Shown here piece by piece: positions 1-34,671 of a stretch of DNA of 64,000 nucleotides. The position numbers were made by a program, and so were the translations under genes. The stretch is from Prostheceraeus crozeri (lineage: Eukaryota; Platyhelminthes; Polycladida; Euryleptidae), in contig CAJQUW010010425.1 in the NCBI GenBank assembly GCA_907163375.1, positions 1-64,000 of the forward strand. The letters run 5' to 3'. The notes beneath the pieces were generated by a model. It searched no databases, had not been told where the DNA came from, and saw only the letters and a program-made list of their open reading frames with translations. Every line of letters starts with the position of its first letter. Positions within the stretch are counted from its first letter, which is position 1.

Positions 1-709
1 CGGGCGAAGCCCTAGTAGACATCTCTGATGTCGTACGAATATTACACCATGACATTTCACCTGTTGGTAATTCTTGTATCATGCAAGAAGAATATAAGCT
101 ATTAAAATCATAATATAACAAATAGTTTTCTCTCATGAATTCATCAATTGCTTTTTCACGTTCTACTCCTTCTCGTTTCGTTCGAAAAATTTCTAATATT
201 TTTTCTTTTTCTTCTGGAGATAGAGGTTTCATTATTCCATATTCTTGTGGATTTACTTTCTAATTATAACATTTAACATATCTATTACCTAAAACTGATG
301 AAACTCCACCTCTAATTCCAGATTCAAAAAATAATAATTTATCATATGTATTTTCTTTATAATGTTTAAGTTTAACGGACTTTGTCCTAGAGCCATCGGC
401 TTGAACATTTGTATGTTTTAATCCTGCTAGCCATGTTAAACCTGGTGTAGAATAACAATAACATGGATCTATTCCGTAATATTCTAAACACATATCACGA
501 AAGTTTTCAAAAAGATCAGCTAGTATTAATACATCTATCTGTAGATATTTCATTGTATAATCATACATTGTTTTACAATTTAACTCTCTCCAATTTTTTT
601 CAGCTTCTGCATAGTCTTCGTCAGATAATTTTGATTGTTTTAATGTTGATTTAAATTTATTTATTGGAGGAAGTTGTTCTTCTTCCATAATTTTATTCAC
701 CGAATTAAA

Positions 710-793
710 ATCAGTCTTCGACTGTGAACCACAGGTTTTATCTCCAGTTATATCAGTCTTCGACTGTGAACCACAGGTTTTATCTCCAGTTAT
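710..793. repeat. Two tandem 42-bp hairpin modules inside pPolB
   Basis: Units 710-751 and 752-793 are identical. Each contains the stem CAGTC-TTC-GACTG and the overlapping stem TGTG-AAC-CACA. They add 14 codons each, giving the repeated peptide around ITGDKTCGSQSKTD in the exonuclease-to-palm region. Length divisible by three keeps the frame. Confidence 0.85.
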
Positions 794-1165
794 ATACTCA
801 TACGGAAATATTCCTTTTAAAGGTTTTAAATTATATTTATTTAATATTTTACATTGTTCAGATTTCAAAGTTTTTCCCATAACATCTAATGAATAAGGAG
901 TAAAAAATCTAAATGCATCTAAAATTCTAATGCAACCTAATTGCATTGAAAAATATTCTTCTTCTGTTTTACATAGTACATTTATTTGTTGTTGTTGTAA
1001 TTTTTCAGATGAAAATAAATCTTTCATTACTAGAGGGAAATCATATTTAGAACCATTGTAGAAATATAGAGGAACAAAGTTATATTTAAATTTATTAGCA
1101 TTAAGATTACAAGAATTATGTGCTGCACCTCTATATAATCCATTTAGATGATCATGATCTTTTAC

Positions 1166-1198
1166 CTTGACGGCAGAGCCGTCGCTTCGCTTGTCAAG
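1166..1198. repeat. 33-bp nested hairpin module inside pPolB
   Basis: Outer arms CTTGAC and GTCAAG enclose GACGGC-AGA-GCCGTC and a GC-TTC-GC mini-stem. It lies in frame in the polymerase between the HDHLNGLYRG region and the KNYKNGKGRY segment. Confidence 0.75.
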
Positions 1199-2096
1199 AT
1201 ATCTACCTTTGCCATTTTTATAATTTTTTGTAAATTCTCTTCCACAGTAATAACATTTTGTTTCATTAATAAAATTTAATTTTTCTTTTTCTGTTAATGG
1301 CATCATTGGAATATTTGTTTCAAGCAATTGTGAAAAACGTCCTTGTAATTCTTCTACTTTCTTTGTAAACATTTCTGAACTATCTTCACCATAGTATTGA
1401 AAATATTCTGATTTAAATAATTCAGGATAATTTGAATGAATGTACATTCCCCAACATAATGGTTTTTGTTCAAATAAATATTTTTCTTTACTTTGTTCAG
1501 CTGAACTTTTTCCAGGTGCACTTTTTTCAGGCGCACTTTTTTCAGAATTATAATTTTCAGAATTATAATTTTCAGAATTATAATTTTCAGAATCGGGTGA
1601 AGCCCTGGAACTTTCCGTTCGATTTTGTGTCATATTAACATTATATGCTTCAAAATCACAATAAATAGTAAAGGGTACTTTATTTTTAAAATACCATTTA
1701 TTATATTCTAAATAATCATCTTTAGGAAAAGTATTTTGAACTGCTTCATTTTGTTGGCAATTCTCCAAATGTCTATTCATTTCTTCTAAAGTTCTAAAAC
1801 TTGTCATACATTGAAGACAAGGAAAATTTTTATTATCTGAAGTTTTTGTAAATATAGAAACATCTTTACACAATATAAAATGTCCCTGATAATATAATAT
1901 ATTCGCTTGTGCTGGTTGTTTTGACTGTACTAATTTTACAAATTCATCTTTATATATTTCATGTGTTTCATTAATTTCTTTTGTAATATTAAATGTATTT
2001 TGATAATAATTTTGATTTAATATTTGTAGCTGATAAATATATTCTTTATCATATTGTTCTTTATATTGTTCTGAACATTTTTTTAAACATTCATTT

Positions 2097-2184
2097 AATC
2101 GGAGCGAAGCTCCTCTGGCTTTAGCCGATTCTTTATTTTCTTCATTATTTAATCGGAGCGAAGCTCCTCTGGCTTTAGCCGATT
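2097..2184. repeat. Two copies of a 34-bp double-hairpin module (2097-2130, 2151-2184)
   Basis: Each unit has outer arms AATCGG/CCGATT, then GGAGC-GAA-GCTCC and GGCT-TTA-GCC stems. The same 34 bp recurs in noncoding DNA at 11024-11057 and, inverted and partial, over the capsid-gene stop codon at 8151-8178. Here both copies are in frame and give the repeated peptide KESAKARGASLRLN. A 54-bp tandem duplication has carried the second copy. Confidence 0.9.
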
Positions 2185-3194
2185 CTTTATTATTTTCTTC
2201 ATTTAATTTTTGAATTGTTTCTATCTCATTTTGATATTTATGGTGATATTCTTGTAGCAACATTTTTATTTGTTGTTGATAATCTATTTTACATTTTTGT
2301 AAACTTTCATTTAAATTTTCTAATTTTTGTTGATATTCTGAAGATAAAGATGAATATTTGTAATTATAATCATCAGTACGTCCTTTATAATTATTATGAT
2401 TAATCATTATTGGTGATAGTGTTTTAACAAGTTCAAATTTTTCAGTACATATTATTTTTCCTTGGTAAAAAATATTATGATGCATGTAATTTCCTCTATC
2501 ATTATATACTATTTCTGATTGACATAAATTTTTATTATTCAAATAAAATTTTTTTGAATCTGAGTAAAGTGGAATAATTTTACCAATAGAAACATAATTC
2601 ACATTTAATTCAAAAACATTTACTTCTATTAAATTTTTATTCTTTTTATGAAACTTTATTAATCTATTATAATCATATGGAAATTCATCTAAGCCATCAG
2701 AAAGATCAAATTCATTTATGTATTCTTCTTTATTATAATGACTTAGTCTTTCTTTATGATATTCTGCAGGATGTAAATGTGCTATAATACTCCACAGAAA
2801 ACAATAATCATCTTCATTTTTTATGTTGATTATTTGTGGTGAACTGAAAGGTAAAGAAACATAACTACCACCAGTATTATTTTTATATTTATCAATTACT
2901 ATTTTCTTAGATAGTATTTTAACAAATCTCCAACCAGATTCACGTAACTGGGCTTCAATTATACAATTTTCTAATTTAAGTATCATCGATTCAAATATGG
3001 GTTGTATATCATTTAAATTATGAATTTCTTGTGAATTTGTAAAATGTCCTTGTATTATTTCTTCAGGAATTCCATCAGGTCCATTTTTTGTATAAAGTAC
3101 TTCTACATTCATATAACATTTGAAAGATTTCTTAAATATATTATAAAAGTTGGTTAGAATATCAGAAAAAGTTTTATCGGTTTCATTATATTCA

Positions 3195-3402
3195 ACGGGC
3201 GAAGCCCTGAAAGACATCTTTGATGTCCCGTGTACAGATTCATTAAATAAATATTTTATATTTGCTAAGGCTTCATCGTTTCGTTCAGCTTCATCAAATT
3301 CATCAGTATCGCCAAATAAATATCTTCCATCTGGTACGGGCGAAGCCCTGGAAGACATCTCCGATGTCCCATGTACGGGCGAAGCCCTAGAACCTTCGGT
3401 TT
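3195..3402. repeat. Cluster of GGGC-GAA-GCCC hairpin modules in pPolB N-terminal region
   Basis: Three occurrences of CGGGCGAAGCCCT at about 3195, 3337 and 3375, two of them followed by GACATC-TYY-GATGTC stems and one by a GAACC-TTC-GGTT stem. Related units lie at 1-40, 1593-1622, 4351-4381, 10932-10961 and 34164-34191. All inside genes preserve the frame; they encode the recurring peptide (S)RASPV(HGTSEMS). Confidence 0.85.
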
Positions 3403-3727
3403 GTATGGTCTCATCTTCACTATTAAAAACTTTTTTATATTCCGAATGTGAATAATCATCAAACATTTTTTTAACTTTTATATCAGTAGGCAATGTTTCT
3501 AGATAGTTTTTATAACTATTTAATTTTAATATATTTCCTTCATCAACTCGTTCTACATTTTGTAAATGCAATTTACTATTTAAATGAGATTGATAACTTC
3601 TTTTTGTTTGCAACTTTTTTTTACATAAGACACAATAAAACTTGGTATTTTCCATTTTTTTATTTTTTAAGGAAAAATTTGTGTTTTAATTTTAGATATA
3701 AACATTCTAATATTTAGGACTTGAGTG

Positions 3728-5110
3728 TTATTTTATATTATTATATATTTCACGTTCTTTAGTTATTTTTTTCTTTATCACATTAAGTTTTATCATATTA
3801 AGTTTTATCTTATTAAGTTTCATCATATAATGTTTTATCAAAAGATAATTTGAATTTTTTTCACTAACTATTGATTCATCATCATCATCATAAATTGTTT
3901 CTTCATCATCATCATAAATTGTTTCTTCATCATCATAAATTACACTTTTTGGTATAGGATGCCCTTCCATGATAGGATACCATTCTCTTATTGGAATATC
4001 TAATTCTAAATTACATCTTTTATCTGATAATAATATAATAGAGAAAAATATTGGTCTTTGATCTCTTTTGGAAAATTTGATAACACCACCATAATTTGAA
4101 TCACTTTTAGTTTTAGTTAAAGATGATAAAATTTTAAATTGATTAGATGTAAATCCTAATTTAAATTTTGTAGACCCGACACATAGTTGTCTAACAGTAT
4201 CTTCAACTATACCATCATTATTATTTTCAATTGTAAGAAAATGAAATTTAGATAAATTTTTATAATTACTAATATTTTTATAATCTTTTTTACCATTTAC
4301 ACCTTTTTCAGATGTTACAGAATCATCATTATTATCATAAGATTCTCTAAGATCGGGCAAAGCCCTAGAACCTTCAGTTCGTTTATTATGAATATGATTA
4401 TGGTCATTGTTAATAGTATAAGGTGTAGTCCACATATAAATTTTCTCTTGTTGAGCTAAACCATTTATATAAGATTTTAATAAATTAATATTTAAGTTGG
4501 AATATAATCCTATATAAGTATCATCATCATATCTTTGGGGCATTTCTAATGTTTCTTGTTTATAAATTGTGTCTCTATAATAAACTTGACATAATAATTC
4601 TTCATTATGTTTTTTACTCTCTATGTGAATGTTATATTGATTTTGTTCATCAACAAATAATCTTATTTTTTCTTTGGAAAAAGATTTTAATTTTTTAACT
4701 AATTCTTTAATATTGATATAATTAATAATTTTAGTTTCTATCCAATCAGTATTACTAATTGGTAACACTGCTCTAATAAATCCATAAACATTATTATGAC
4801 CTATTATAACCATATTTTCTTTATTTAATTCAACATAAGCTACATCATTATATTTACTTACAATCTCCATAAATTTAATAAATGGATCCCCCGGAAATAA
4901 ACAATAATTAGTTTCTATAGAAGGTAAACCTTTAGTCTGTTCTCTAAATATTTCGGCTTGTAATTGAAATAAAATATTAACATCTATACATGGATTATTA
5001 TTATTATTATTATTATCAAAACATTTATTTTCAAATCCCGTTGATCTCGTCGAATAAGAAGAACAGGATGATGCGGGCGAATATAATTTTTTTAAATTTG
5101 GATTTTCCAT
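3728..5110 (-). CDS. Unknown 460-aa Polinton-like protein with acidic tail repeats
   Basis: Not recognised with confidence. It starts at ATG 5110 and is divergent from the fibre gene at 5216 across a 105-bp AT-rich spacer. The N-terminus is low complexity with an Asn run. Residues about 50-330 alternate short beta-like and helical stretches (FIKFMEIVSKYNDVAYVEL; IKELVKKLKSFSKEKIRLFV), a rhythm that loosely recalls sliding clamps; this is inference only. The C-terminus has three tandem acidic units near YDDDEETIYDDDDES and ends in a Lys/Ile-rich repeat. One hairpin module (4351-4381) is inserted in frame and gives the peptide GSRALPD. Neighbour of pPolB on the same strand, so a replication role is plausible. 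The frame is intact. Confidence 0.6.
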   Translation of the reverse strand: MENPNLKKLYSPASSCSSYSTRSTGFENKCFDNNNNNNNPCIDVNILFQLQAEIFREQTKGLPSIETNYCLFPGDPFIKFMEIVSKYNDVAYVELNKENMVIIGHNNVYGFIRAVLPISNTDWIETKIINYINIKELVKKLKSFSKEKIRLFVDEQNQYNIHIESKKHNEELLCQVYYRDTIYKQETLEMPQRYDDDTYIGLYSNLNINLLKSYINGLAQQEKIYMWTTPYTINNDHNHIHNKRTEGSRALPDLRESYDNNDDSVTSEKGVNGKKDYKNISNYKNLSKFHFLTIENNNDGIVEDTVRQLCVGSTKFKLGFTSNQFKILSSLTKTKSDSNYGGVIKFSKRDQRPIFFSIILLSDKRCNLELDIPIREWYPIMEGHPIPKSVIYDDEETIYDDDEETIYDDDDESIVSEKNSNYLLIKHYMMKLNKIKLNMIKLNVIKKKITKEREIYNNIK

Positions 5111-5215
5111 TTTTTTATTTTTATTAGAAAAAATTTTATTTTTTTATTTTTATTAGAAAAAATTTTATTTTTTTATTTTTATTAGAAAAAGTTTTACTTT
5201 TTTATTGTTTTAAAA
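5111..5215. promoter_or_regulatory. Divergent AT-rich intergenic spacer with about 37-bp tandem units
   Basis: Three near-identical units built from TTTTTATTTTTATTAGAAAAA separate the minus-strand 460-aa gene from the plus-strand fibre gene. Both start codons directly abut A/T runs. It is the only place for promoters of both genes, so a bidirectional promoter is inferred; no TATA consensus stands out from the AT-rich background. Confidence 0.4.
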
Positions 5216-6103
5216 ATGATGTTACCAAATGTTGGTGGAGGTGCATATATCCCGAATAATCGTGAATTAGAAATAGAGATAGAAAATTATATCATGAAAA
5301 CTGGAGACGTTTTATCTGGACCATTGCATCTTTCTATTCTTCCGCAACAAAATACAGAGTTAACAAATAAACAATATGTTGATACACAAATCAATGACTT
5401 AAAGGAAAAATATATAAACGATGTTTTGGTTCCACTGATGAACGAATTAAAGTTGCTTAAACTTAATGACAAATCATTAAACGAAAAATTATTAAAACTT
5501 GATAAAAAGGATAGAGAGCTAGAAGCAGATATAGCAAAACTTTTTAAAAAGATTTCTGAACAATCAAAAATTTTAATATTACTTTCTTTAAATTTAAAAT
5601 CTGCTGTAATTAAAAATAAACATCAGATAAAAATGTTAAAAGAACAATTAGAAGATGAAATAGAAAAACTACCTGAAAGAATTAAAAAAAATTTAAAGCA
5701 GTTACAAACTACATTCCAAAAAAGTGTTGATGAATTGAGTTCTAAAATTACTCAACAAATGAAAAAGATGAATAGAATAATAAATGAAGTAAACTCACTT
5801 AATCAAAAAGTTGATAAAATGAAAACTCTTAAAATCAATTTAGAAAATGAATTAAAGAAAAATTTACAAGTAAACTCTAAAGAAAATAAAGAACAGTTAG
5901 ATTCTGTTAAAAGACAATTAGATGTTCTTAAAATTAAGCTAAATGCTCTTAAAACGGCGTTGAAGATTAATCAGCAGAAAATGCAAGTTAATAGAAAAGA
6001 AATTAAAGTACATCACACGCTGCTTGACGCAATAGATAAAGTGCAACAGTCAATTAATAAAGTTATCTCGAAGTTGTTGTCCATTCACAAACGTAAATCT
6101 TAA
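5216..6103 (+). CDS. Fibre-like coiled-coil protein with phage-tail-type N-terminal motif (copy A)
   Basis: 295 aa. Residues 27-60 (MKTGDVLSGPLHLSILP, then TNKQYVDTQIND) resemble the short repeat of tail-fibre and receptor-binding fibres of phages, where a G-x-L-x-L...P...(T/N)K-x-YVD unit forms a trimer-promoting turn. The rest is a long Lys/Leu-rich coiled coil (about 60-290) with heptads, ending in the basic IHKRKS. This architecture suits a trimeric capsid spike or fibre; that function is inference. It opens the plus-strand structural gene array and precedes the pVI-like gene by 42 bp. A decayed paralogue lies at 29240-30114. Confidence 0.55.
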   Translation: MMLPNVGGGAYIPNNRELEIEIENYIMKTGDVLSGPLHLSILPQQNTELTNKQYVDTQINDLKEKYINDVLVPLMNELKLLKLNDKSLNEKLLKLDKKDRELEADIAKLFKKISEQSKILILLSLNLKSAVIKNKHQIKMLKEQLEDEIEKLPERIKKNLKQLQTTFQKSVDELSSKITQQMKKMNRIINEVNSLNQKVDKMKTLKINLENELKKNLQVNSKENKEQLDSVKRQLDVLKIKLNALKTALKINQQKMQVNRKEIKVHHTLLDAIDKVQQSINKVISKLLSIHKRKS

Positions 6104-6145
6104 CACGTAGATATTTTTCCCAAAAGTCAAATTTAATCCTAAAAA

Positions 6146-6709
6146 ATGCCTATAATTTATAAACACAATCTTAAACATTTTGCATCAAATAATAAAATTG
6201 CTCATGAACCATCTCAGAAACCTGTGTACCATTATGATAGTGTAGAAACTGTCGGAACACAAAAGTTCCTAGGCACCGCAGGTGCCGTCCAAAAAGAAGG
6301 GGCTGGCATCTTTTCTGGTATTGGAAGTATCGTTAACTTAATTAAAAATAATAAAGATTTGATTACATCTGCTGCAAAAGGAGCAGCTGCTATAGGTAGT
6401 ACAGCTAGTGCAATATCAAATGCTGTCAAGTCTCAAAACGAATTAAAACAACTAGAAGCTATTCGTAAACTTAGGAATGATTCCGAAGAACTAAAAAATT
6501 TAAAAAAACTTTCAGAGGAAACAAAAAACAAAATTGCTAACATAGCTGTGGGGGGTGAAACCTTGAGGAGCGGAGCTCCGTCTAATAGTAAACATAATGA
6601 AAATAAAAATAATAAAAAAACAATTGAAGAAATAAGAGGAAATGACGTGAGTAGCAACCTTCGGTTTAACCAGCAAAGCTGTAGCGGAGCTGGTCTAGCA
6701 AAATTCTAA
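6146..6709 (+). CDS. pVI/pX-like minor capsid protein candidate (copy A)
   Basis: 187 aa. A Gly-rich hydrophobic, amphipathic stretch at about 54-95 (GIFSGIGSIVNLIKNN, then AAKGAAAIGSTASAISNAV) is followed by a charged helix, as in adenovirus-type membrane-lytic minor proteins; homology is inferred from context and character only. Compared with copy B (152 aa, 30142-30600) it carries extra in-frame hairpin modules at about 6250-6288 (GGCACC-GCA-GGTGCC) and near 6568-6582 and 6656-6698 (GGAGC-GGA-GCTCC, AACC-TTC-GGTT, AGC-AAA-GCT). The protein thus shows module gain or loss between paralogues. Confidence 0.5.
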   Translation: MPIIYKHNLKHFASNNKIAHEPSQKPVYHYDSVETVGTQKFLGTAGAVQKEGAGIFSGIGSIVNLIKNNKDLITSAAKGAAAIGSTASAISNAVKSQNELKQLEAIRKLRNDSEELKNLKKLSEETKNKIANIAVGGETLRSGAPSNSKHNENKNNKKTIEEIRGNDVSSNLRFNQQSCSGAGLAKF

Positions 6710-6821
6710 AATATATTTTTTAGTAAAATTTTTTTAGCAAAATTATTTTAGCAAAATTATTTTAGTAAAATTTTTTTCTGTCTGTGAGAAAAAACAAAAA
6801 GTCAAATTATTTTTTATAAAA
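6710..6821. other. AT-rich spacer with short TTTTAGYAAAAT repeats
   Basis: Five or so repeats of a TTTTTTAGCAAAATTA-like unit lie between the pVI-like and capsid genes, ending in TTTTTATAAAAATG at the capsid start. It probably carries the capsid-gene promoter, but nothing more specific can be seen. Confidence 0.35.
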
Positions 6822-8156
6822 ATGTCTTCGCTTATCGAAAATAAATTTAGATTAGACGATCCTCCGTTCGTCAGTTATAATCAAAAAAAGAATGACTATA
6901 TAAGAATTGCTATGAATCCCGGATCTTCCAGTAGAGTAAATACTGGAGGAGATTTAATTTTTGAAGTTGATAATCAGCAGAGTTATTTATATCTACCTGA
7001 TTCATTTTTACACTGTGAATATTCTTTGTATAGTGATGCCAATTTTACAACACCATTACCAGAAACCGATAATATTGCACTAGAGAATAATTTCTTTCCA
7101 AGATTATTTACACAAATGCGTTTAGATGTTGTAACTCAAAATATAGAAACAATAAGTGATTCTCCAGGTGTAATTGATACAATGCTTAGATTTGTAACAA
7201 TTGGTGAAAATAATAAAAAGTATGAAATCGAAGGTTGGTTTCCTGATACTAATGATGGTATAATTGTTGATGATTTAACTCACGCTGGAACAGATGCAGC
7301 AGGAATTGCGAAAGATGTAGAAAATATTGCAAAACATTTAAATAAAACAAATAATGAAGCATATAAAGAAAGACGTGAATTTAACAAAAAAAGTAAACAG
7401 ACAGTAAATTGGTCATTGTCTCCATTATTCGGATATTTAGATTATGATAAAATATCATATCAATTAAAATTTAAATTAATAATTCATCGTACAGCAAATA
7501 ATGAATTAATCTTTTTTGGTAAGACTGGGAAAAAAGCATATTTAAAAATTGATAGACTTGAATGGTGGATTAAGCATATTACTCCTAGTTTAGAGGTTGA
7601 AACAGCTATTGCAAAAAGATTAAATACTAACAAACCAATTCCAGTAAATTTTCTAAAGCGTACTGCTAGTTCAGTAACTTTTTCCGAACAAAGATTTAAC
7701 TGGCATTTTACTAGAACTGCGAATACACCAAGATATTTATTACTAACATTTCAAAGAAATAATTCTCCAAGTTTTGATAAGAACAACAATATTTTTCATA
7801 TTAATACAATTCGAAGTTTACAAGTTTCATTAAATCAAACTCGATATCCAATTGATCCATTAAGATTCGATGATACCAATAATCAATTTATGGAAGGATA
7901 TGATTGTTATCGAAATCTTTGTACAGAATTTGGAGTTGAACCACAATTAACTCCTGGAGATTGGAGACATTTATATCCTGTTTTCTGTTTCGATTTAAGT
8001 GCACAATCTGAAGATATTATTAAAAATGGTTGTGATGTAACAATTAATATTGAAAAGAAAGATTCCACAACTTCATTGATGGCTTATGGTTTATTGCTAG
8101 AAGATGTAAAATATTCTATTGAAATTCTTAATGGAAAGATGGTAAGGATAGGCTAA
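6822..8156 (+). CDS. Major capsid protein candidate, double-jelly-roll type (copy A)
   Basis: 444 aa and full length. It is beta-rich, with features I associate with Polinton/adintovirus-type hexon-like coat proteins: an N-terminal TGGDLIFEVDNQQ strand region, FFPRLFTQMRLDVV, LEWWIKHITPSLEVE in the middle, FNWHFTRTANTPRYLLLTF, and a C-terminal HLYPVFCFDLSAQSEDI followed by the closing strand SIEILNGKMVRIG. Position between the minor-protein genes and the integrase fits a coat gene. The stop codon falls inside an inverted hairpin module at 8151-8178. A paralogue with many lesions lies at 30636-31954. The assignment to a jelly-roll fold is from memory of the family and context, not from a structure. 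Confidence 0.6.
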   Translation: MSSLIENKFRLDDPPFVSYNQKKNDYIRIAMNPGSSSRVNTGGDLIFEVDNQQSYLYLPDSFLHCEYSLYSDANFTTPLPETDNIALENNFFPRLFTQMRLDVVTQNIETISDSPGVIDTMLRFVTIGENNKKYEIEGWFPDTNDGIIVDDLTHAGTDAAGIAKDVENIAKHLNKTNNEAYKERREFNKKSKQTVNWSLSPLFGYLDYDKISYQLKFKLIIHRTANNELIFFGKTGKKAYLKIDRLEWWIKHITPSLEVETAIAKRLNTNKPIPVNFLKRTASSVTFSEQRFNWHFTRTANTPRYLLLTFQRNNSPSFDKNNNIFHINTIRSLQVSLNQTRYPIDPLRFDDTNNQFMEGYDCYRNLCTEFGVEPQLTPGDWRHLYPVFCFDLSAQSEDIIKNGCDVTINIEKKDSTTSLMAYGLLLEDVKYSIEILNGKMVRIG

Positions 8157-8178
8157 AGCCAGAGGAGCTTCGCTCTGA
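8151..8178. repeat. Inverted, partial copy of the 34-bp hairpin module at the capsid stop codon
   Basis: GGCT-AAA-GCC and GGAGC-TTC-GCTC stems are the reverse complement of the module seen at 2097-2184. The TAA stop of the capsid gene lies in it. At the same position copy B has a different set of stems (about 31946-32008), so the 3' end of the gene has been replaced by different modules. Confidence 0.75.
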
Positions 8179-8338
8179 TAAGTTAATTAAAATTTTTTCA
8201 TAACTAGAATAGATTAAAAATTTTGGTAACTTAAAATTTTTGGTAACTAGAATAAATTAAAATTTTTTGGTAACTTGAAATTTTTTCATAACTAGAATAG
8301 ATTTAAATTTTTGATAACTTAAAATTTTTTTATTAAAA
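8179..8338. repeat. AT-rich tandem repeats between capsid and minor protein genes
   Basis: Imperfect units of TAACTAGAATAGATTAAAA alternate with ATTTTTGGTAACTTAAAA. The same kind of array is found at 32010-32217 in copy B, so it belongs to the element. Role unknown; a promoter or transcript-end region is possible. Confidence 0.6.
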
Positions 8339-8824
8339 ATGTCGCAAGCGAAAAGTAATATTAATAATAAAACTGTTGAATTAAAATTACGTAATATTGT
8401 TGACAAAAATACCCCTAAAACTATTACTATTAATTAAAAAAAGTATTACATAAGTAAACCAATGATAGAGAATATTCAATTACAAGAAGAAAAGAATGGC
8501 GGGATTCTCCCATTAATTCCACTAATAATAGGTGGCATAGCTGCAGCAGGAAGTGTTGCAGGTGGGACAGCTGGTATTGTCCAAGCAGTAAATAAAAATA
8601 AATCAGAGAAGGCAGCATTAGAAGAACAAAAACGCCATAACAGAGAGTTAGAGAAAGTTGCTAGGGGTGAAGGAGTAGTAGATAATTTTATTAGTAAATT
8701 AAAATTAGTTGATGAAGGAAAACGAGTTCTTAAAAATATTCTCCACAATGTTGATGATTTAATTGAAATTAAAGAAACAAAAGATGGTTCTGGAATATAT
8801 CTAAGTCCTAGTATGATTCGGTAA
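8339..8824 (+). pseudogene. Membrane-active minor capsid-like protein, nonsense mutation (copy A)
   Basis: Same protein as the intact 160-aa gene at 32218-32700. The ATG is at 8339, but codon 33 is TAA (8435-8437) where copy B has a sense codon; the rest is open from 8438 to the stop. An ATG at 8462 could still give a 120-aa product keeping the hydrophobic Gly/Ala-rich segment (GGILPLIPLIIGGIAAAGSV) and the charged helix EEQKRHNRELEKV. The segment suits a membrane-interacting minor virion protein; that is inference. Confidence 0.65.
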
Positions 8825-8876
8825 TAACCTCAGGACCTTTGGTCCATAAGGTAAAACATTTATTTTATCTTTTAAA

Positions 8877-10181
8877 ATGAATTCTACAAATTCCGAAAAT
8901 TTAACTAAATTAAAAATTTCTAATTTAGATTTATTGAATTATCTATTAAACAAAAATAAAAACTCACATTGTCAGGATATTGGAGGTGACAAGAACAAAG
9001 TTCCATACCACTTCGGTGGTGATATACAAAAAACATTAGAAAACTTTCCTGGATTTATTTGGAGTAAATATTCGAAAGAAAAACATCTTCCTGGTCATTC
9101 ATATACTGGTCCAGGAACTCGATTAGATATAAGACTAGATGAGAATAATAATCCGAAACCAGGTGAAGAACCAATAAATAGAGTAGATGCCGCAGCTTAC
9201 AGGCATGATTTAGCTTATCGAAATCATGATCTAAGTTCTCGACATGCAGCTGATAAGAAGATGATTCAAGAATTAGATAGTATTCAGAATCCTACATTTA
9301 GAGAAAAAATTGAAAGAATGTTTGTTAAAAAAGCTTTACAAGCTAAAATATTATTCGGTCAGGGTTTAAATGAAAATCATAATTTAGACGTTTACGCGTC
9401 TGAAATCCACAAGGAATATAGAAGACATAAATATTTATTGAAAGTAAAAGTATTTAATAAAGATGATATTTGGAGTGCTGATCTTATTCATATGCCGAAT
9501 GAAAGGGACTACAAATACGCATTGACCGTTATAGATTTATATACACGATACGCTTGGGTAAAGCCTTTAAAAAATAAAAGTGGTCTATCAGTTAAATATG
9601 CGTTTGAAGGAATCTTTAAAGAAAGTAATAGAAAGCCAAGGAAATTGTTTGTTGATAAAGGATCGGAATTTTATAACCGAAACGTTCAGCCACTATTTGA
9701 AATTGTTTATTCAACTGAAAATGCAGGAAAAGCTGTAGTGATAGAAAGATTCAATCGGACGTTAAAAAATAAATTATTCAAGAAATTTACTCAGCAAGGA
9801 AATCAGAAATGGTTGAAGATATTACCAGGAGTTGTAGAAGAGTACAATAATAAAGTTCATTCTGGTATTGAAGAAACCCCAAAGAATGCTTCTGACGACC
9901 CTGATTTGATACGAAAGAAAATATTCGAGAATAATAATTTGAATGAGAGTAATCCGAATTTGCAGAAACTTAAGCCGAAATTTAAAATTGGAGATAGAGT
10001 TAGAATATTTAAATATAAGAATAAATTTGAAAAAGGCTTTGTTGGCTATTGGACTAAAGAAATATTTGAAGTTTCTAAAATAAATCAAAGTTATCCGATT
10101 ACTTATGAAATTAAAGATTTAGATAATGAGGATATCAGAGGTCGTTTTTATCAAAATGAATTACAGAAAACAGAGCTTTAA
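8877..10181 (+). CDS. Parvovirus-type phospholipase A2 domain fused to retrovirus-like integrase (copy A)
   Basis: 434 aa in one open frame. Residues about 70-155 are a viral-type PLA2 domain: calcium-loop motif SYTGPGTRL and catalytic RHDLAY near residue 109. Residues about 175-434 are an rve integrase: first Asp in IWSADLIHM, second in LFVDKGSEF, Glu in KAVVIERFNRTLK, with 29 residues between the last two, then a C-terminal basic/SH3-like part (IGDRVRIFKYKNKFEKGF). Integrase would insert the element; PLA2 would breach host membranes during particle entry. No stop or start separates them. Copy B (32784-34073) has the same fusion. Compared with B, A has an extra hairpin module (TACCAC-TTC-GGTGGT, about 8996-9020) before the PLA2 domain and lacks others at 9371-9400. 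A proteolytic split by the element's protease is possible but not visible. Confidence 0.85.
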   Translation: MNSTNSENLTKLKISNLDLLNYLLNKNKNSHCQDIGGDKNKVPYHFGGDIQKTLENFPGFIWSKYSKEKHLPGHSYTGPGTRLDIRLDENNNPKPGEEPINRVDAAAYRHDLAYRNHDLSSRHAADKKMIQELDSIQNPTFREKIERMFVKKALQAKILFGQGLNENHNLDVYASEIHKEYRRHKYLLKVKVFNKDDIWSADLIHMPNERDYKYALTVIDLYTRYAWVKPLKNKSGLSVKYAFEGIFKESNRKPRKLFVDKGSEFYNRNVQPLFEIVYSTENAGKAVVIERFNRTLKNKLFKKFTQQGNQKWLKILPGVVEEYNNKVHSGIEETPKNASDDPDLIRKKIFENNNLNESNPNLQKLKPKFKIGDRVRIFKYKNKFEKGFVGYWTKEIFEVSKINQSYPITYEIKDLDNEDIRGRFYQNELQKTEL

Positions 10182-10215
10182 CCTTTAGGTGGCGCTTTAG
10201 CTAGCTTCGCTTGAG

Positions 10216-10677
10216 TTATAGATTGTTTAACTCTAACATAATATCTAGAAATGATACTCCTTTTTGTAATTTGTACAAAACGTATAAACATAATTGTCCA
10301 CTATAAGTAGTTCCCGGTTTTTGAATTTGAAACGTATTATAAATTCCATTGCCAAGTATTTCTGTTACTTCATTCGTAGGTGGAAGTCCGTATGAGTCAA
10401 AATAATAATTTGAACAGTTTATATTTCTTTGTCCTGCTGACCAATGTACGCCTTTTTCATCTGACGTATGGAGATTGGTTACGAAATTTACAGTTATTGA
10501 TGGAACTTTGTTCCGGGAACTGAAGGTTCCTGTTGGCTTATTTTTTAGGAATTGTAATTCGTCTCTCATTAGAACATGAAAATTCTTTATTCCTAATTCA
10601 TTTGCGATTTTCTTTAGGTCGAAATTTGTCGTAGTTTGCGTTCCATATAATTTAAAAAACTTATTTATGTTGCTCAT
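10216..10677 (-). CDS. Adenain-like maturation cysteine protease (copy A)
   Basis: 153 aa, ATG at 10677. The catalytic order matches the adenovirus protease fold: His in GVHWSAG (about residue 78), acidic residue in YYFDSYGLPP (about 94) and Cys in SGQLCLYVLYKL (about 129). Expected to mature the virion proteins encoded just upstream on the other strand. It converges with the PLA2-integrase gene, 34 bp apart. Hairpin stems GGAAC-TTT-GTTCC at 10502-10514 are inside the frame and shared by copy B, so this insertion predates the duplication. Intact. Confidence 0.85.
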   Translation of the reverse strand: MSNINKFFKLYGTQTTTNFDLKKIANELGIKNFHVLMRDELQFLKNKPTGTFSSRNKVPSITVNFVTNLHTSDEKGVHWSAGQRNINCSNYYFDSYGLPPTNEVTEILGNGIYNTFQIQKPGTTYSGQLCLYVLYKLQKGVSFLDIMLELNNL

Positions 10678-10679
10678 TT

Positions 10680-11271
10680 TATAATAAAAAAATTTCTTAA
10701 GGGACCCCTAGAAGACAGAAGGGAGGGGGTAGCAGAACTACGTTCATATGATATTGAAGGATATATTCTTGCTGTTTCTTCCACTTTTGTTTCTTCCACT
10801 TTTAAAGAAATATTTTTAGACACATGATATATTTTAAAAACCTGAAAGATGGATAAAATTCATGAATTTGAAATTCTCAACTTTTATGATTTTTGGTGTC
10901 CTGGAACGGTCATGATTTAAGCAATGAAAATCGAACCGAAGGTTCTAGGGCTTCGCCCGATTGTAATTCTCAAATTTTGAGATTTTGAAAAATTTGAAAA
11001 TTGGGTATTTTTAAAAACGCCCAAATCGGAGCGAAGCTCCTCTGGCTTTAGCCGATTTATGAATTTAGGTCTTCATAACCTGAAAAAGGGTTCAAATTCA
11101 TGAATTTATGTCGTTTTTAAAGATACCAATTTTTTTGATTTTATGGTGTCCTGGAACGGTCTAAATTCATGTATTTAGGTCTTAAAAACCTGAAAAAGGG
11201 TCTAAATTCATGAATTTATGTCGTTTTTAAAGATACTATTTTTTTGGAATTTTAGGTGTCCTGGAACGGTC
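10680..11271. repeat. Terminal noncoding region of block A with iterated 17-bp motif
   Basis: No gene. GGTGTCCTGGAACGGTC occurs at 10895-10911, 11145-11161 and 11255-11271, the last two as ends of a 110-bp tandem unit (AATTCATGAATTTATGTCG...). Hairpin modules lie at 10932-10961 and 11024-11057. The part 10759-10990 resembles 35617-35960 beyond copy B, which has the same 17-bp motif. It looks like the shared outer end of the A/B element family; the block stops where the gag fragment begins. Confidence 0.7.
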
Positions 11272-21056: not shown

Positions 21057-21058
21057 TA

Positions 21059-21775
21059 TAAAACCTAAAGGAAAATTATTTTTTACTCAAGATAATTTAG
21101 CTTTTGATTTAAATAGAGATTTTGTAGATCTATTAAGAGGAGGAGAATTGAAAAATTATCATAGAGATGAATTGATAAAATACAAAGCTATTCTAGATAG
21201 TGTAAACGCAGCAAAAAATTCTAAACGTTATAAAGCATTAAATAACTTATTAAATCCGACTGGAATGAGTGCTCCATCTGGAATGACTACATCATGTGGA
21301 ATGGGGGATGTATGCACGAGCGTATGGGGCATAACCAATGAGTACACAAGCATATGGGACATCATATATACCAAGACCAATGGGAACGCCATCAATGAGT
21401 ACACCAGTATATTATGGAACATCATATATACCAAGACCAATGGGAACACCATCAATGAGTTCACCAGTATATGGAATACAACCATCATCATCAGCATATG
21501 GAACATCATCATATGGAGCATCATCATCATCAACAATGATTACACCTTTAAGTGATCCTTCATCAAAAAGAACACGAACAGGACTAAAAGAGACAATGGT
21601 TTTCCTACCTGATGATCCACAAGAATTAATAAATAGATTAGAGATTTTATTAGCTGCAACAAAGGAAGGACATAACTCTAGCTTTAACGAAATACACGCA
21701 ATATTGAAACGGTTATTGGAAAAGAAAATTATAAATAAGAAGGACTACAAAAGTTTATCTAAATTATTTAGTTAA
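21059..21775 (+). pseudogene. Block C protein with Tyr/Pro-rich tandem repeats, split by Tc1
   Basis: Function unknown. Removing the Tc1 element and one TA joins about 10 codons left of 19384 (LGGKPLY...) in frame with KPKGKLFFTQDNLAFDLNRD to the right. The frame 21059-21300 is helical. It then shifts by one base near 21300 and meets a TAA at about 21332-21334 before the repeat region YGTSYIPRPMGTPSMS (two units, 21356-21470). The C-terminus (21600-21775) is a compact helical domain (FLPDDPQELINRLEILLAAT). It is followed within 3 bp by the penton-like gene, in an operon-like layout. Confidence 0.6.
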
Positions 21776-21777
21776 AA

Positions 21778-30635: not shown

Positions 30636-31954
30636 ATGTCGTCTCTGATCGAAAGTAAATTTAGATTAGACGATCCCCCGTTCGTCAGTTATAATCAAAA
30701 AAAGAATGACTATATAAGAATTACTATGAACCCTGGATCTTCAGGTAGAGTGAATACTGGAGGTGATTTAATCTTTGAAGTTGATAATCAGCAAAAGTTA
30801 TTTATATTTACCCGATTCATTTTTACACTGTGAACATTCTCTCTATTCTGATGATGAAAACACCATTACCTGCTACGGATAATATTACATTGGAAAATAA
30901 TTTCTTTCCAAGATTATTTACACAATTGCGTTTGGATGTTGCAACTCAAAATATAGAAACAGTAAGTGATTCTCCAGGTATTATTGATTCGATGCTTCGA
31001 TTTGTTACAAAGGATGAAAATAATAAAATGCATGAAATCGAAAGATGGTTTCCAGATAATAATGATGGAATAATTGTAGATGATTTATCTCACGCTGGAA
31101 CAGACGCAGCAGGAATTGCGAAGGATGTAGAAAAATTGCAGAACATTTAAATAAAACAAACAATAGTGCATATAAAGAATGCATTTTAATAATAAAAGTA
31201 AACAAACTGTTGATTGGTCGTTATCTCCATTATTTGGTTATTTAGATTATAATAAAATATCATGTCAATTAAAGTTCAAATTAATAATTCATCGCACTGT
31301 AAGTAATGAATGAATATTTTATGGTAAGACTGGAAAAAAAGCATACATAAAAATTGAAAAACTTGAATGGTGGGTAAAACATATTACTCCTAGTTTAGAG
31401 GTTGAAACAACTATTACGAAAAGATTAAATACTAATAAACCAATTCCAGTAAGTTTTATGAAACGTATTGCTAGTTCTGTAACTTTTACTGAACAAAGAT
31501 TTAACTGGCATTTCACAAGGACATCAAATACTCCAAGATATTTTTTACTCGCTTTTCAAAAGAATGAAACTCCTAGTTTTGATAAGAACAATAGTCGTTT
31601 CCACATCAATTCAATTAGAAGTTTACAAATTTCTTTAAATCAAACACGTTATCCCATCGATCCAATAAGATTTGATGACACAAATAATCAATTCATGGAA
31701 GGATGTGATGCTTATAGAAATCTATGTCGAGAATTTGGAGTTGAAACACAATTAACTCCTGTAGATTGGAATACCCTGTTTTCTGTTTTGATTTAAGTGC
31801 TCAATCTGAAGATATTACTAAGAATGGTAGTGATGTGGCAATTAATATTGAAAAGAAAGATTCCACAACTTCATTGATGGCTTATGGTTTATTGCTAGAA
31901 GATGTAAAATATTCTATTGAAATTCTTAATGGAAAGAAGGCTAGGATAGGTTAG
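30636..31954 (+). pseudogene. Major capsid protein candidate, decayed (copy B)
   Basis: Same gene as 6822-8156, with a one-base insertion near 30793, further shifts near 30855, 31130-31190 and 31775, and a TGA near 31311. All segments are recognisable, including the C-terminus MAYGLLLEDVKYSIEILN. Not functional. Confidence 0.75.
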
Positions 31955-32217
31955 TAACCTGAGGACCTTTGGTCTGATCGGTTAAAGCCCAAGACTTCGT
32001 CGATTAATTAATTTTTTTCATAACTAGAATAGATTAAAATTTTTTGGTAACTTAAAATTTTTTGGTAACTTAAAATTTTTTCATAATTAGAATAGATTAA
32101 AAATTCTTAACTTAAAAATTTTTCGTAACTAGAATAGATTAAAAATTCTTAACTTAAAAATTTTTCGTAACTAGTTTAGATTAAAAATTTTGGTAACTTA
32201 CAATTTTTTTATTAAAA
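31946..32217. repeat. Hairpin modules and AT-rich tandem repeats after the copy B capsid gene
   Basis: 31946-32008 has GGTTAGTAACC, GGACC-TTT-GGTC and GAC-TTC-GTC stems, a different set from copy A at the same place. 32010-32217 has about six TAACTAGAATAGATTAAAA / GGTAACTTAAAATTTTT units. Confidence 0.65.
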
Positions 32218-32700
32218 ATGTCGCAAGCGAAAAGTAATAATAATAAGACTGTTGAATTAAAATTAGGTAATATTGTTGACAAAAATACCCCTGAAACTAT
32301 TACGATTAACAAAAAAAAGTATTACATAAGTAAACCAATGATAGAGAATATTCAATTACAAGAAGAAAAGAATGGCGGGATTCTCCCATTAATTCCACTA
32401 ATAATAGGTGGCATAGCTGCAGCAGGAAGTGTTGCAGGTGGGACAGCTGGTATTGTCCAAGCAGTAAATAAAAATAAATCAGAGAAGGCAGCATTAGAAG
32501 AACAAAAACGTCATAATAGGGAATTGGAGAAAGTTGCTAGGGGTGAAGGAATAGTAGATAATTTTATTAGTAAATTAAAATTAGTTGATGAAGGAAAACG
32601 AGTTCTTAAAAATATTCTCCACAATGTTGATGATTTAATTGAAAATAAAGAAACTAAAGATGGTTCTGGAATAAATCTAAGTCCTAGCATGATTCGGTAA
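32218..32700 (+). CDS. Membrane-active minor capsid-like protein (copy B, intact)
   Basis: 160 aa. A polar N-terminal 50 residues, then the hydrophobic Gly/Ala segment GGILPLIPLIIGGIAAAGSV AGGTAGIVQAV (about 57-87), a charged helix (EEQKRHNRELEKVARGEG) and a C-terminal KDGSGINLSPSMIR. Typical of small Polinton structural proteins of unknown detail; role in membrane interaction is inferred. After the stop lie two hairpin stems (GGACC-TTT-GGTCC and GAACC-TTT-GGTTC, 32706-32752), one more than in copy A. Confidence 0.6.
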   Translation: MSQAKSNNNKTVELKLGNIVDKNTPETITINKKKYYISKPMIENIQLQEEKNGGILPLIPLIIGGIAAAGSVAGGTAGIVQAVNKNKSEKAALEEQKRHNRELEKVARGEGIVDNFISKLKLVDEGKRVLKNILHNVDDLIENKETKDGSGINLSPSMIR

Positions 32701-32783
32701 TAACCTCAGGACCTTTGGTCCGATAGGCTAAAGCCTCAGAACCTTTGGTTCTATTAGGTAAAACATTTATTTTATCTTTTAAA

Positions 32784-34073
32784 ATGAATTCTACAAATTC
32801 CGAAAATTTAATTAAATTAAAAATTGCTAATTTAGATTTATTAAATTATCTATTAAACAAAAATAAAAACTCAAATTGTAAAATTTATGAAGGTAACAAC
32901 ATACAAAAAACATTAGAAAACTTTCCTGGATTTATTTGGAGTAAATATTCGAAAGAAAAACATCTTCCTGGTCATTCATATACTGGTCCAGGAACTCGAT
33001 TAGATATAAGACTAGATGAGAATAATAATCCGAAACCAGGTGAAGAACCAATCAATAGAGTAGATGCCGCAGCTTACAGACATGATTTAGCTTATCGAAA
33101 TCATGACCTAAGTTCTCGTCATGCAGCTGATAAGAAGAAGATTCAAGAATTAGATAGTATTCAAAATCCTACATTCAGAGAAAAAATTGAAAGAATGTTT
33201 GTTAAGAAAGCTTTACAAGCTAAAATATTATTCGGTCAGGGTTTAAATGAAACGACAGCAAAGCTGTCTGAGAGCAACGCTCGAACCTACGCGTCCGAAA
33301 TGTCGACTGACCCAAGCCGCTATGCGTCTGAAATTCATAAAGAATACAGAAGGCCTAAATATTTATTGAAAGTAAAAGTATTTAATAAAGATGATATTTG
33401 GAGTGCTGATCTTGTTCATATGCCGAATGATTCTGATTATAAACACGCATTGACCGTTATAGATTTATATACACGATATGCTTGGGTAAAGCCTTTAAAA
33501 AATAAAAGTGGTCTATCAGTTAAATATGCGTTTGAAGAAATCTTTAAAGAAAGTAAGAGAAAGCTAAAAAAATTGTTTGTTGATAAAGGGTCGGAATTTT
33601 ATAACCGAAACGTTCAACCACTATTTGAAACTGTTTATTTAACTGAAAATGCAGGAAAAGCTGTAGTGATAGAAAGATTCAATCGGACGTTAAAAAATAA
33701 ATTATTCATGAAATTTACTGAGCAGAGAAATCAGAAATGGTTGAAGGTATTACCAGGAATTGTAGAGCAGTACAATAATAAAGTTCATTCTGGTATTAAA
33801 GAAACCCCAAAGAATGCTTCCGACGACCCTGATTTGATACGAAAGAAAATATTCGAGAATAATAATTTGAATGAGAGTAATCCGGATTTGCAGAAACTTA
33901 AGCCGAAATTTAAAATTGGAGATAGAGTTAGAATATTTAAATATAAGAATAAATTTGAAAAAGGCTTCGTCGGATACTGGCCTAAAGAAATATTTGAAGT
34001 TTGTAAAATAAACCAAACTTATCCGATTACTTACGAAATCAAAGATTTAGATGATGAAAATATCAGAGGCTGA
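32784..34073 (+). CDS. Phospholipase A2-integrase fusion (copy B)
   Basis: ATG at 32784, same start context as copy A (CTTTTAAAATG). PLA2 motifs YTGPGTRL and RHDLAY and integrase motifs IWSADLVHM, LFVDKGSEF and VVIERFNRTLK are intact. A TGA at 34071-34073 replaces an Arg codon and removes only the last dozen residues (readable to about 34110). It lacks the copy A module before PLA2 but has an 80-bp run of stems at about 33250-33330 (ACAGC-AAA-GCTGT, GAGC-AAC-GCTC and others) between PLA2 and integrase, lengthening the linker in frame. Confidence 0.82.
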   Translation: MNSTNSENLIKLKIANLDLLNYLLNKNKNSNCKIYEGNNIQKTLENFPGFIWSKYSKEKHLPGHSYTGPGTRLDIRLDENNNPKPGEEPINRVDAAAYRHDLAYRNHDLSSRHAADKKKIQELDSIQNPTFREKIERMFVKKALQAKILFGQGLNETTAKLSESNARTYASEMSTDPSRYASEIHKEYRRPKYLLKVKVFNKDDIWSADLVHMPNDSDYKHALTVIDLYTRYAWVKPLKNKSGLSVKYAFEEIFKESKRKLKKLFVDKGSEFYNRNVQPLFETVYLTENAGKAVVIERFNRTLKNKLFMKFTEQRNQKWLKVLPGIVEQYNNKVHSGIKETPKNASDDPDLIRKKIFENNNLNESNPDLQKLKPKFKIGDRVRIFKYKNKFEKGFVGYWPKEIFEVCKINQTYPITYEIKDLDDENIRG

Positions 34074-34180
34074 TTTTATCAAAATGAATTACAACGAACT
34101 GATTTTTAATTATCATTATCATTATTATTGGAACTAACGTTTCGGGAATGAAATTCCCTTGTTAGGCGTAGCCATAGAAC

Positions 34181-34671
34181 CTACGGTTCGTTCAATTCTA
34201 ACATAATATCAACAAATGGCACTCCTTTTTGTAATTTAAATAAAACATAAAGACATAATTGACCACAATAAGTAGTTCCCGGTTTTTGAATTTGAAATGT
34301 ATTATAAATTCCATTGCCAAGTAATTTTTTGACTTAGTTTGTAGGTGGAAGTCCATAAGAGTCGAACCAATAGTTCTCAGCCTCCGGGCGGTCGAAATAG
34401 TAATTATCTCGATTTTTATTAAAGATACCTGCAGACCAATGTACTCCTTTTTGGTCTGACGTATGAAGATTTGTTATGAAATTTATAGTTATTGATGGAA
34501 CTTTGTTCCGGGAACTGAAGGTTCCTGTTGGCTTTTTTTTAGGAATTGTAATTCGTCTCTCATTAGAACATGAAAATTCTTTATTCCCAATTGATTTGCG
34601 ATTTTCTTTAAATCGAAATTTGTAGTTGTTTGTGTTCCATATAATTTCAAAAACTCATTTATGTTGCTCAT
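34181..34671 (-). pseudogene. Adenain-like protease, decayed (copy B)
   Basis: Paralogue of 10216-10677. ATG at 34671. A frameshift in a T run near 34535 and a TAA near 34335 break it, and a foreign-looking insert lies around 34375-34425. The His region and the Cys region (C-G/Q-LCLYVLFKL-like) can still be traced. Near the stop, hairpin stems GGGAAT-GAA-ATTCCC, GGC-GTA-GCC and GAACC-TAC-GGTTC (34144-34191). Confidence 0.7.

What the first reader, a model, noticed from the sequence alone, without database searches (positions are those of the whole stretch)
1..11057. Mobile mini-hairpin modules inserted in frame in genes of a virus-like element
Seen: dozens of short stems with mostly 3-nt loops (GGGC-GAA-GCCC, GGAGC-GAA-GCTCC, GAACC-TTC-GGTTC, GACATC-TCT-GATGTC, CAGTC-TTC-GACTG, GGCACC-GCA-GGTGCC). 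They are GC-rich islands in AT-rich DNA. An identical 34-bp module is in the polymerase gene twice (2097-2130, 2151-2184), in terminal noncoding DNA (11024-11057) and, inverted, at the capsid stop (8151-8178). Inside genes they keep the frame. This resembles palindromic elements known in Rickettsia coding genes, but in a eukaryotic Polinton-like element I know of no description.
Basis: partly seen in the sequence, partly recalled or inferred. Interest (0 to 1): 0.88.

Follow-up and report, generated by a model that had tools for sequence, protein, structure and literature searches.

The report
Hopping 28-letter double hairpins in virus-like DNA
In an animal-type genome full of virus-like elements, tiny DNA units that fold into two hairpins (often 28 letters long) appear to have been inserted at many places in those elements, usually next to a two-letter duplicated target, and many sit inside protein genes without breaking the reading frame.

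Summary
The unit is a double hairpin, most often 28 nt, flanked by a 2-nt direct repeat (AT, TA, AA), so an insertion adds 30 nt, ten codons. A strict detector finds 11 units in element A (9 if two tandem copies are set aside), all 28 nt, against 0.083 in shuffles; in window DNA outside A and B it finds none. Near-identical element copies differ by single units with clean empty sites. Eleven of 12 hairpin-type indels in genes are multiples of 3; the exception lies at the capsid stop. Two 28-mers occur 2,366 and at least 2,812 times in the genome. Best reading: a non-autonomous mini mobile element inserted into 2-nt staggered cuts in Polinton-like DNA, working like yeast mitochondrial GC clusters but nuclear, in a virus-like element and inside genes. 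Against it: flanking repeats of 2 nt or more are as common at other indels here, recombination between copies reshuffles units, and no mobilising enzyme is known.

The parts
376..403 (+). 28-nt unit c(GGACtttGTCC)tag(AGCCatcGGCT)tg, AA on both sides, inside the PolB-like gene
   Evidence: empty allele in L010, L019, L020, L021 (4 of 9 scorable copies)
712..739 (+). 28-nt unit (CAGTCttcGACTG)tg(AACCacaGGTT)tt, AT on both sides, PolB-like gene
   Evidence: empty in L005, L006, L020 and, with 3 nt left over, L024 (4 of 27)
754..781 (+). second copy of the same unit; in the window copy a 42-nt repeat of the first, in many copies a diverged unit with a change on both arms of one stem (AACC/GGTT to AGCC/GGCT)
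1169..1190 (+). 22-nt unit with stem GACGGCagaGCCGTC, TT on both sides; 24-nt polymorphism
   Evidence: empty in L001, L010, L025; one search lists L024 too
1594..1621 (+). 28-nt unit, diverged relative of the GGGC/GAACC type, AT on both sides; its peptide is absent from the homologues that cover the place
   Evidence: sequence; protein alignment
2100..2127 (+). 28-nt unit c(GGAGCgaaGCTCC)tct(GGCTttAGCC)g, AT on both sides
2154..2181 (+). the same unit, probably by a 54-nt tandem duplication
3196..3232 (+). 37-nt unit GGGCgaaGCCC + GACATCtttGATGTC; AA and AA in L018 and L022; in the window the right side reads TA
   Evidence: 15 filled, 12 empty of 27
3337..3373 (+). 37-nt unit, TA on both sides
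   Evidence: sequence
3376..3403 (+). 28-nt unit c(GGGCgaaGCCC)tag(AACCttcGGTT)tg, TA on both sides
   Evidence: empty in L008, L011, L012, L026 (4 of 22)
4354..4381 (+). 28-nt unit in the 460-aa ORF; left AT, right TT (repeat not intact)
   Evidence: sequence
6251..6287 (+). double hairpin (GGAACacaaaaGTTCC)ta(GGCACCgcaGGTGCC) in ORF 6146-6709; absent from element B; second hairpin replaced in 8 copies; no clear 2-nt repeat
6559..6583 (+). 25-nt unit with stem GGAGCggaGCTCC; GA on both sides in L043; 27-nt polymorphism in the window
   Evidence: empty in L029, L038, L048
6654..6681 (+). 28-nt unit gc(AACCttcGGTT)taac(CAGCaaaGCTG), TA on both sides; lies in a 48-nt indel
8150..8177 (-). inverted relative of the 2100 unit at the capsid stop, AT on both sides; supplies the stop codon
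   Evidence: empty in L035, L048
8818..8845 (+). 28-nt unit over the end of ORF 8462-8824, AT on both sides
   Evidence: shorter allele in L043
8990..9024 (+). double hairpin GAACaaaGTTC / CCACttcgGTGG in the PLA2-integrase gene; about 30 nt absent from element B
10501..10530 (+). double hairpin GGAACtttGTTCC / GGAACtgaagGTTCC, shared with element B; 33-nt shorter allele in L031 alone of 17 scorable sequences
10932..10959 (-). 28-nt unit GAACCgaaGGTTC / GGGCttcGCCC, AT on both sides, terminal non-coding DNA; element B lacks it
11027..11054 (+). 28-nt unit identical to 2100, AT on both sides, terminal non-coding DNA
31948..31976 (+). element B, 29-nt unit at the capsid stop, AT on both sides
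32694..32722 (+). element B, 29-nt unit, AT on both sides
32725..32752 (+). element B, 28-nt unit next to it, absent from the window copy of A
33253..33283 (+). element B, 31-nt unit c(GACAGCaaaGCTGTC)tga(GAGCaacGCTC)g, AA on both sides, inside the integrase gene; absent from A in the window
34164..34190 (+). element B, 27-nt unit, TT on both sides, between ORFs
260..3655 (-). PolB-like gene with N-terminal zinc finger, carrier of most units of A
   Evidence: four of the seven aligned homologues carry PF03175
6822..8156 (+). double-jelly-roll capsid gene (PF21738)
8877..10181 (+). PLA2-like plus rve integrase gene

Best explanation
The units are non-autonomous mini mobile elements. Each is a short DNA (most often 28 nt; variants about 22-37) that folds into two neighbouring hairpins with mostly 3-nt loops. 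Shown: units are present or absent at exact sites between near-identical copies; identical 28-mers sit at unrelated sites; at most sites equal dinucleotides, mostly A/T, flank the unit flush; nearly all hairpin indels in genes keep the frame. Inferred: a trans-acting enzyme or structure-specific nuclease makes a 2-nt staggered break at an A/T dinucleotide, the folded unit (excised or copied) is joined in, and the gap is filled, giving the 2-nt duplication. This would happen while the Polinton-like DNA replicates or is single-stranded, which would explain why the units crowd in these elements and not in the host DNA sampled. 28+2=30 adds ten codons, so units can survive inside genes in frames without stops. 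Recombination between element copies then shuffles, duplicates and deletes them.
For: Strict detector: 11 units in A (9 without the tandem copies at 754 and 2154), all 28 nt though 22-39 was allowed, shuffle mean 0.083 of 60; B 5 (0.18); other window DNA 0 of 37.6 kb; with 40 kb more, 1 hit in 77.6 kb. With the right-hand repeat moved by -3, +3, +4, +5 nt A gives 0, 5, 3, 4 hits. Empty and filled alleles among 27 polymerase-region copies (window included) at 0.8-3.4% divergence. A unit at 11103 in L035 only, 1 of 9 scorable sequences. Equal flanking dinucleotides in 18 of 23 site groups found by sequence match, in 19 of 21 curated sites, and at 100 of 100 and 99 of 100 listed genome places of two units. 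Unit peptides absent from the homologues that cover the places. Frame. Ten folded sequences all give two hairpins.
Against: No mobilising enzyme is identified; the rve integrase would be expected to make a longer duplication (recalled, not tested). A direct repeat of 2 nt or more is as frequent at other non-tandem indels (39 of 51) as at hairpin indels (12 of 16); repeats of 2-4 nt are 16 of 51 against 9 of 16, so the repeat alone does not prove transposition. The curated list was not blind. The genome-wide places are largely a few sites multiplied with the element. The L035 unit is an inverted near-copy of the unit about 50 nt away, so fold-back copying could have made it. Presence and absence fit the polymerase tree little better than shuffled labels at most sites. 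Of 42 distinct units over all loci only 20 are 28 nt. Some units lack an intact repeat (3264, 4354) or a clear one (6251, 8990, 10501). Single folds are modest (z -0.2 to -3.9). Zero hits in host DNA is also what shuffles allow (mean 1.55 for the 37.6 kb).
Confidence: 0.6

Rival explanations
1. Replication errors: template switching at quasi-palindromes during copying of the element makes perfect hairpins locally and copies neighbours by fold-back, without a transposition-like step.
For: Perfect arms; a change on both arms at one site (AACC/GGTT to AGCC/GGCT); the L035 unit lies inverted about 50 nt from its near-copy; flanking repeats are no commoner than at other indels.
Against: Identical 28-mers at distant sites, the single length in A and the position of the equal dinucleotides flush with the unit ask for a defined donor unit and a staggered target.
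Confidence: 0.16
2. The units are functional RNA hairpins (transcript ends or 3' processing signals, like the hairpin rule of giant viruses) kept by selection; those inside genes are by-products.
For: Several sit at or between gene ends (8150, 8818, the arrays after 6103, 10932). In Noumeavirus two thirds of palindromes lie between genes and one mRNA end was mapped in a hairpin (PMC5413956, passages seen).
Against: Many lie inside genes, and presence varies between copies with open polymerase frames (17 of 25).
Confidence: 0.1
3. Old insertions only: the units stopped moving long ago, and present variation is recombination and gene conversion among the many element copies.
For: Labels are nearly random on the tree. 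Deletions of 141 and 180 nt run between units of the same type.
Against: A unit seen in one of 9 scorable sequences with a clean AT repeat (L035); exact 28-mers shared by different sites.
Confidence: 0.11
4. Internally deleted remains of a larger DNA transposon with 2-bp duplications (Tc1/mariner or ISL2EU type; the 2-bp rule is recalled).
For: A/T-rich 2-nt repeats; a Tc3-type transposase lies at 19544-20542.
Against: Repeated dinucleotides are AT, TA, AA and GA, not TA alone; no common terminal repeat beyond a frequent C...G end; several unrelated sequences share the fold.
Confidence: 0.03

Closest known systems
Yeast mitochondrial GC clusters (GC42 and kin)
   Different: Mitochondrial; here a nuclear-type genome and a virus-like element, A/T dinucleotides, often 28 nt, many inside genes in frame.
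Double-hairpin elements of Allomyces mtDNA; repetitive hairpin elements of sponge mtDNA
   Same: Dispersed hairpin units with scattered distribution; the double-hairpin name fits (Allomyces anatomy recalled).
   Different: Allomyces elements are reported to lack flanking duplications (PMC2800124, passages seen); both are mitochondrial.
Rickettsia palindromic elements
   Same: Selfish palindromic elements (PMC6649704, discussion read) inserted in frame in protein genes (recalled).
   Different: Longer elements in a bacterium (recalled); here two hairpins of about 10-16 nt and a 2-nt repeat.
Palindromic elements in Magnusiomyces mitochondrial genes (byp elements)
   Same: Palindromic units interrupting genes (PMC6649704, discussion read; the name byp recalled).
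   Different: Those are transcribed but untranslated by translational bypassing; here lengths in genes are multiples of 3, as if translated (not tested).
Submariner MITEs of Pandoravirus
   Same: Inverted-repeat units that invaded a large DNA virus, some inside genes (PMC5799277, passages seen).
   Different: Recalled as longer elements with transposon-type ends.

Membership tests
Mobile GC-cluster / double-hairpin kind | short GC-rich unit folding into hairpins in AT-rich DNA | tested here: met
Mobile GC-cluster / double-hairpin kind | presence/absence at homologous sites | tested here: met
Mobile GC-cluster / double-hairpin kind | short target duplication | tested here: inconclusive
   equal dinucleotides in 18 of 23 and 19 of 21 sites, but repeats of 2 nt or more are as common at other indels
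Mobile GC-cluster / double-hairpin kind | mitochondrial location | tested here: not met
   the units lie in elements with PolB-like, rve and capsid genes, in contigs with retrotransposons and a hAT-type gene
Rickettsia palindromic elements | in-frame palindrome inside genes | tested here: met
Rickettsia palindromic elements | sequence found in bacteria | tested here: inconclusive
   one unit (28-mer) has 0 exact matches in genome contigs; no other unit was searched there
byp elements | sequence skipped by the ribosome | not testable with these tools
   needs protein or ribosome data
Polinton-like / adintovirus-like carrier | double-jelly-roll capsid | tested here: met
   PF21738, E 1.2e-18
Polinton-like / adintovirus-like carrier | rve integrase | tested here: met
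   PF00665, E 4.1e-9
Polinton-like / adintovirus-like carrier | type B DNA polymerase | tested here: met
   element B PF03175 E 2.8e-30; A has no PolB hit of its own in Pfam and is assigned by alignment to homologues with PF03175
Polinton-like / adintovirus-like carrier | A32-type packaging ATPase | tested here: inconclusive
   PF04665 E 0.0047, under the cut-off, in the left part of one copy
Polinton-like / adintovirus-like carrier | terminal inverted repeats | tested here: inconclusive
   the 10932-type unit occurs in opposite orientation about 16-22 kb apart in several contigs, such as C33, C57 and C65; ends not mapped

The most novel reading that the evidence does not exclude
A new class of nuclear mini-transposon: a folded DNA of about 28 nt with no gene of its own that hops in trans among integrating animal virus-like elements, makes a 2-nt A/T target duplication, and whose 28+2 length makes an insertion a ready ten-codon in-frame peptide, so that virus-like genes can take up small peptide insertions without being broken.
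Probability: 0.3. Interest if true: 0.92.

Novelty: new variant of a known kind. Interest (0 to 1): 0.8.

Why it matters
Mobile hairpin units have been described mainly from mitochondria, and their mover is unknown. Here a similar unit, active or recently active, sits in nuclear virus-like DNA with many near-identical copies that give before-and-after sites, so target choice, duplication length and gain rate can be measured. It also shows a route by which virus-like genes may gain in-frame peptides.

Tried and rejected
Relatives outside this genome: capsid scans of viral contigs gave none; two unit cores (26 nt) gave 0 exact matches there and one 28-mer gave 0 in genome contigs, so spread among hosts could not be tested. 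Rfam gave no match at the gathering threshold. Earlier double-hairpin scans were too insensitive or too noisy. An alignment of 11 cores misplaced its last three rows, and stem registers differ, so no covariance model was built. The host was not identified: the best listed Gypsy relatives are at most 51% identical. Dropped rows: L028 (unrelated outside about 540-2500) from the counts; L039, L040, L044, L048 (rearranged) from the indel table; 2 of 27 copies could not be mapped for the frame count.

Literature: ten searches of one open-licence library. No title or abstract start listed there described mobile hairpins inserted in genes of nuclear or Polinton-like DNA; some searches listed only 15 of 34, 20 of 44 and 10 of 15 papers. 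Subscription papers were not covered.

The flank control speaks against the duplication argument, so the best explanation went from 0.66 to 0.60 and the template-switch rival from 0.12 to 0.16, with small shifts elsewhere.


Full report
Setting. The window is contig C8638, bases 1-64000, of a 2.05-Gb genome in 14,165 contigs. Outside the elements it carries BEL/Pao, Gypsy, Tc3-type and hAT-type genes, as in an animal nuclear genome; the species was not identified. Element A fills window 1 to about 11,280 and is cut at the contig start. It encodes a PolB-like protein with a zinc finger (260-3655, minus), a 460-aa ORF, a coiled-coil-like protein, a small ORF, a double-jelly-roll capsid (PF21738), a further ORF and a PLA2-like/rve integrase fusion. 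Element B (about 20,900-36,000) shares its right half with A at about 75-85% identity in the main blocks but has another polymerase. A capsid search of the genome scored 95 hits, all at 99-100% identity, out of 17,825 first-look candidates, which points to a large, recent expansion.

Strong stems number 13 in element A against 0.17 in 30 dinucleotide shuffles. They come in pairs. A strict detector (two hairpins with 2-4-nt loops, at least 8 bp in all, next to a repeated A/T dinucleotide, unit length 22-39) finds 11 units in A against a mean of 0.083 in 60 shuffles, and all 11 are 28 nt long; two of them (754, 2154) are tandem copies, so 9 count as separate. It finds 5 in B (lengths 27-31) against 0.18, and 0 in the 37.6 kb of window DNA outside A and B, where shuffles give 1.55 by chance. 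With 40 kb of further samples (4 stretches picked by coordinate) there is 1 hit in 77.6 kb. Moving the right-hand repeat by -3, +3, +4 or +5 nt leaves 0, 5, 3 and 4 hits in A. Over the window elements and the 48 fetched element loci 42 distinct units pass, 20 of them 28 nt and 8 of them 29 nt. Ten unit sequences folded as single-stranded DNA all give two hairpins, with z-scores from -0.2 to -3.9.

Insertion, not ancestry. In a protein alignment of the polymerase with seven homologues the unit peptides are extra stretches missing from the homologues that cover the places; P0040, P0041 and P0046 are partial there. Against B, units are present in A and missing in B and the reverse. Twenty-eight loci of the polymerase region and 20 of the right half were fetched. 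L028 was dropped and L002 is the window copy; the other 26 differ from the window by 0.8-3.4% in aligned blocks. Scored sequences, filled against empty, of 27: site 3195, 15 and 12; site 1563, 9 and 18; site 712, 23 and 4; site 1166, 23 and 3 (1 not scored); site 3372, 18 and 4 (5 not scored); site 374, 5 and 4 (18 not scored, mostly outside the fetched stretch); site 3264, 17 empty, 3 with a 37-nt unit, 2 with a 28-nt unit, 1 other (4 not scored). A unit at 11103 is present in L035 and absent from 7 other copies and the window; 12 copies could not be scored.

Target repeat. The clean pairs read directly. Site 3376: CCCATGTATGG empty; filled, a 28-nt unit between TA and TA. Site 374: AA and AA. 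Site 3195 in L018 and L022: AA and AA around a 37-nt unit, empty ATTCAAAAGACTG. Site 10932: AT and AT, with B as the empty site. Grouping matches to eight unit sequences by flank gives equal dinucleotides in 18 of 23 groups. In a curated list of 21 sites 19 have them (9 AT, 5 TA, 4 AA, 1 GA) where 9% is expected; that list was not made blind. Genome-wide, the 100 listed places of one 28-mer all have AT on both sides (2,024 of 2,366 matches pass the flank filter), and 99 of 100 listed places of a second have equal dinucleotides; many of these are one element site in different copies. Totals are 1197+1169 exact matches for the first and 1335+1477 for the second within the filter, with 0 for the reversed control. 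Against this, a mechanical count over 81 clean indels shows direct repeats of 2 nt or more at 12 of 16 hairpin indels and at 39 of 51 other non-tandem indels, and repeats of 2-4 nt at 9 of 16 and 16 of 51. So it is the flush position and the recurrence, not the mere presence of a repeat, that favour a target duplication.

Frame. Of 12 hairpin-type indel rows inside genes (10 places) 11 are multiples of 3; in non-coding DNA 2 of 4 are. Other indels in genes also favour multiples of 3 (tandem type 8 of 10, other 11 of 14), so part of this is ordinary selection on genes. The polymerase stretch 569-3424 is open and in frame in 17 of 25 mapped copies. The exception is the capsid stop: units there supply a new stop, so that 18 of 19 sequences with the anchor (B included) still end in R-I-G-stop; L037 does not, and 3 lacked the anchor. 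Units in genes read as short polar peptides such as SAKARGASLR, QTEGSRASPV and QADGSRTKSV.

Reshuffling. Presence and absence fit the polymerase tree hardly better than shuffled labels at most sites (best at 1563: 5 steps against 7.7), so recombination or conversion between copies is likely common. Deletions of 141 and 180 nt run between units of one type, and units are tandemly repeated in the integrase gene and in non-coding arrays after 6103. L024 keeps 3 extra nt at site 712, which may be an excision trace; it is a single case.

Mechanism. Recurring units of one length in A, distant identical copies and equal flush dinucleotides point to insertion into a staggered cut. Fold-back copying alone explains distant copies poorly, though it could explain L035, whose unit lies inverted about 50 nt from a near-copy. 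The units share a fold (stem of about 5, 3-nt loop, 2-3 nt, stem of about 4, 3-nt loop, often C...G at the ends) more than a sequence, and halves recur in different pairs (GGGCgaaGCCC is joined to either of two second hairpins), so the fold may be what is recognised. That step, the enzyme, and the idea that movement happens on replicating element DNA are inference. Seven ORFs in the left part of one copy gave a weak ATPase match and, outside the element, a hAT fragment, but no further recombinase of the element.

Comparison. In working it resembles yeast mitochondrial GC clusters, which have AG or ACT flanking repeats and copy-number variation (PMC4478555, passages). It is not filed as a member: the location is nuclear, the dinucleotides are mostly A/T, and many units lie in genes. 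Allomyces elements are said to lack duplications (PMC2800124, passages). Rickettsia and Magnusiomyces elements share palindromes in genes (PMC6649704, abstract and discussion). Ten searches of one open library, three of them listed only in part, showed no paper on such units in nuclear or Polinton-like DNA; subscription papers were not covered.

Noticed in passing
8146-8181; L035, L037, L042, L045, L046, L048: Different units at the capsid stop codon mostly rebuild the same C-terminus (R-I-G-stop), because they bring GGCTAA or GGTTAG at their edge; L037 is an exception.
   Followed up: yes
1524-1583: A 15-nt in-frame tandem repeat (TTTTCAGAATTATAA) in the polymerase gene varies in number among copies.
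   Followed up: partly
8877-10181 and 32745-34073: A PLA2-like domain is fused to an rve integrase in one ORF.
   Followed up: no
36731-37234: An ORF with a TATA-binding-protein match (PF00352, E 1.2e-10) lies to the right of element B.
   Followed up: no
36061-36585: Two copies of a GC-rich palindromic block (cggcgcaagcgaagcg...) near the right edge of element B.
   Followed up: no
28453-28495: A strong palindrome AAGTCCGGacgtCCGGACTT followed by a second hairpin, in element B.
   Followed up: no
L053:6930-7010: Two tandem double-hairpin units (GGACATC.. and GGGC.. stems) at the end of a small ORF in the left part of another copy.
   Followed up: partly
L046, L040: Extra stretches of 1,840 and 2,561 nt inside element copies, as placed by the alignment.
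   Followed up: no
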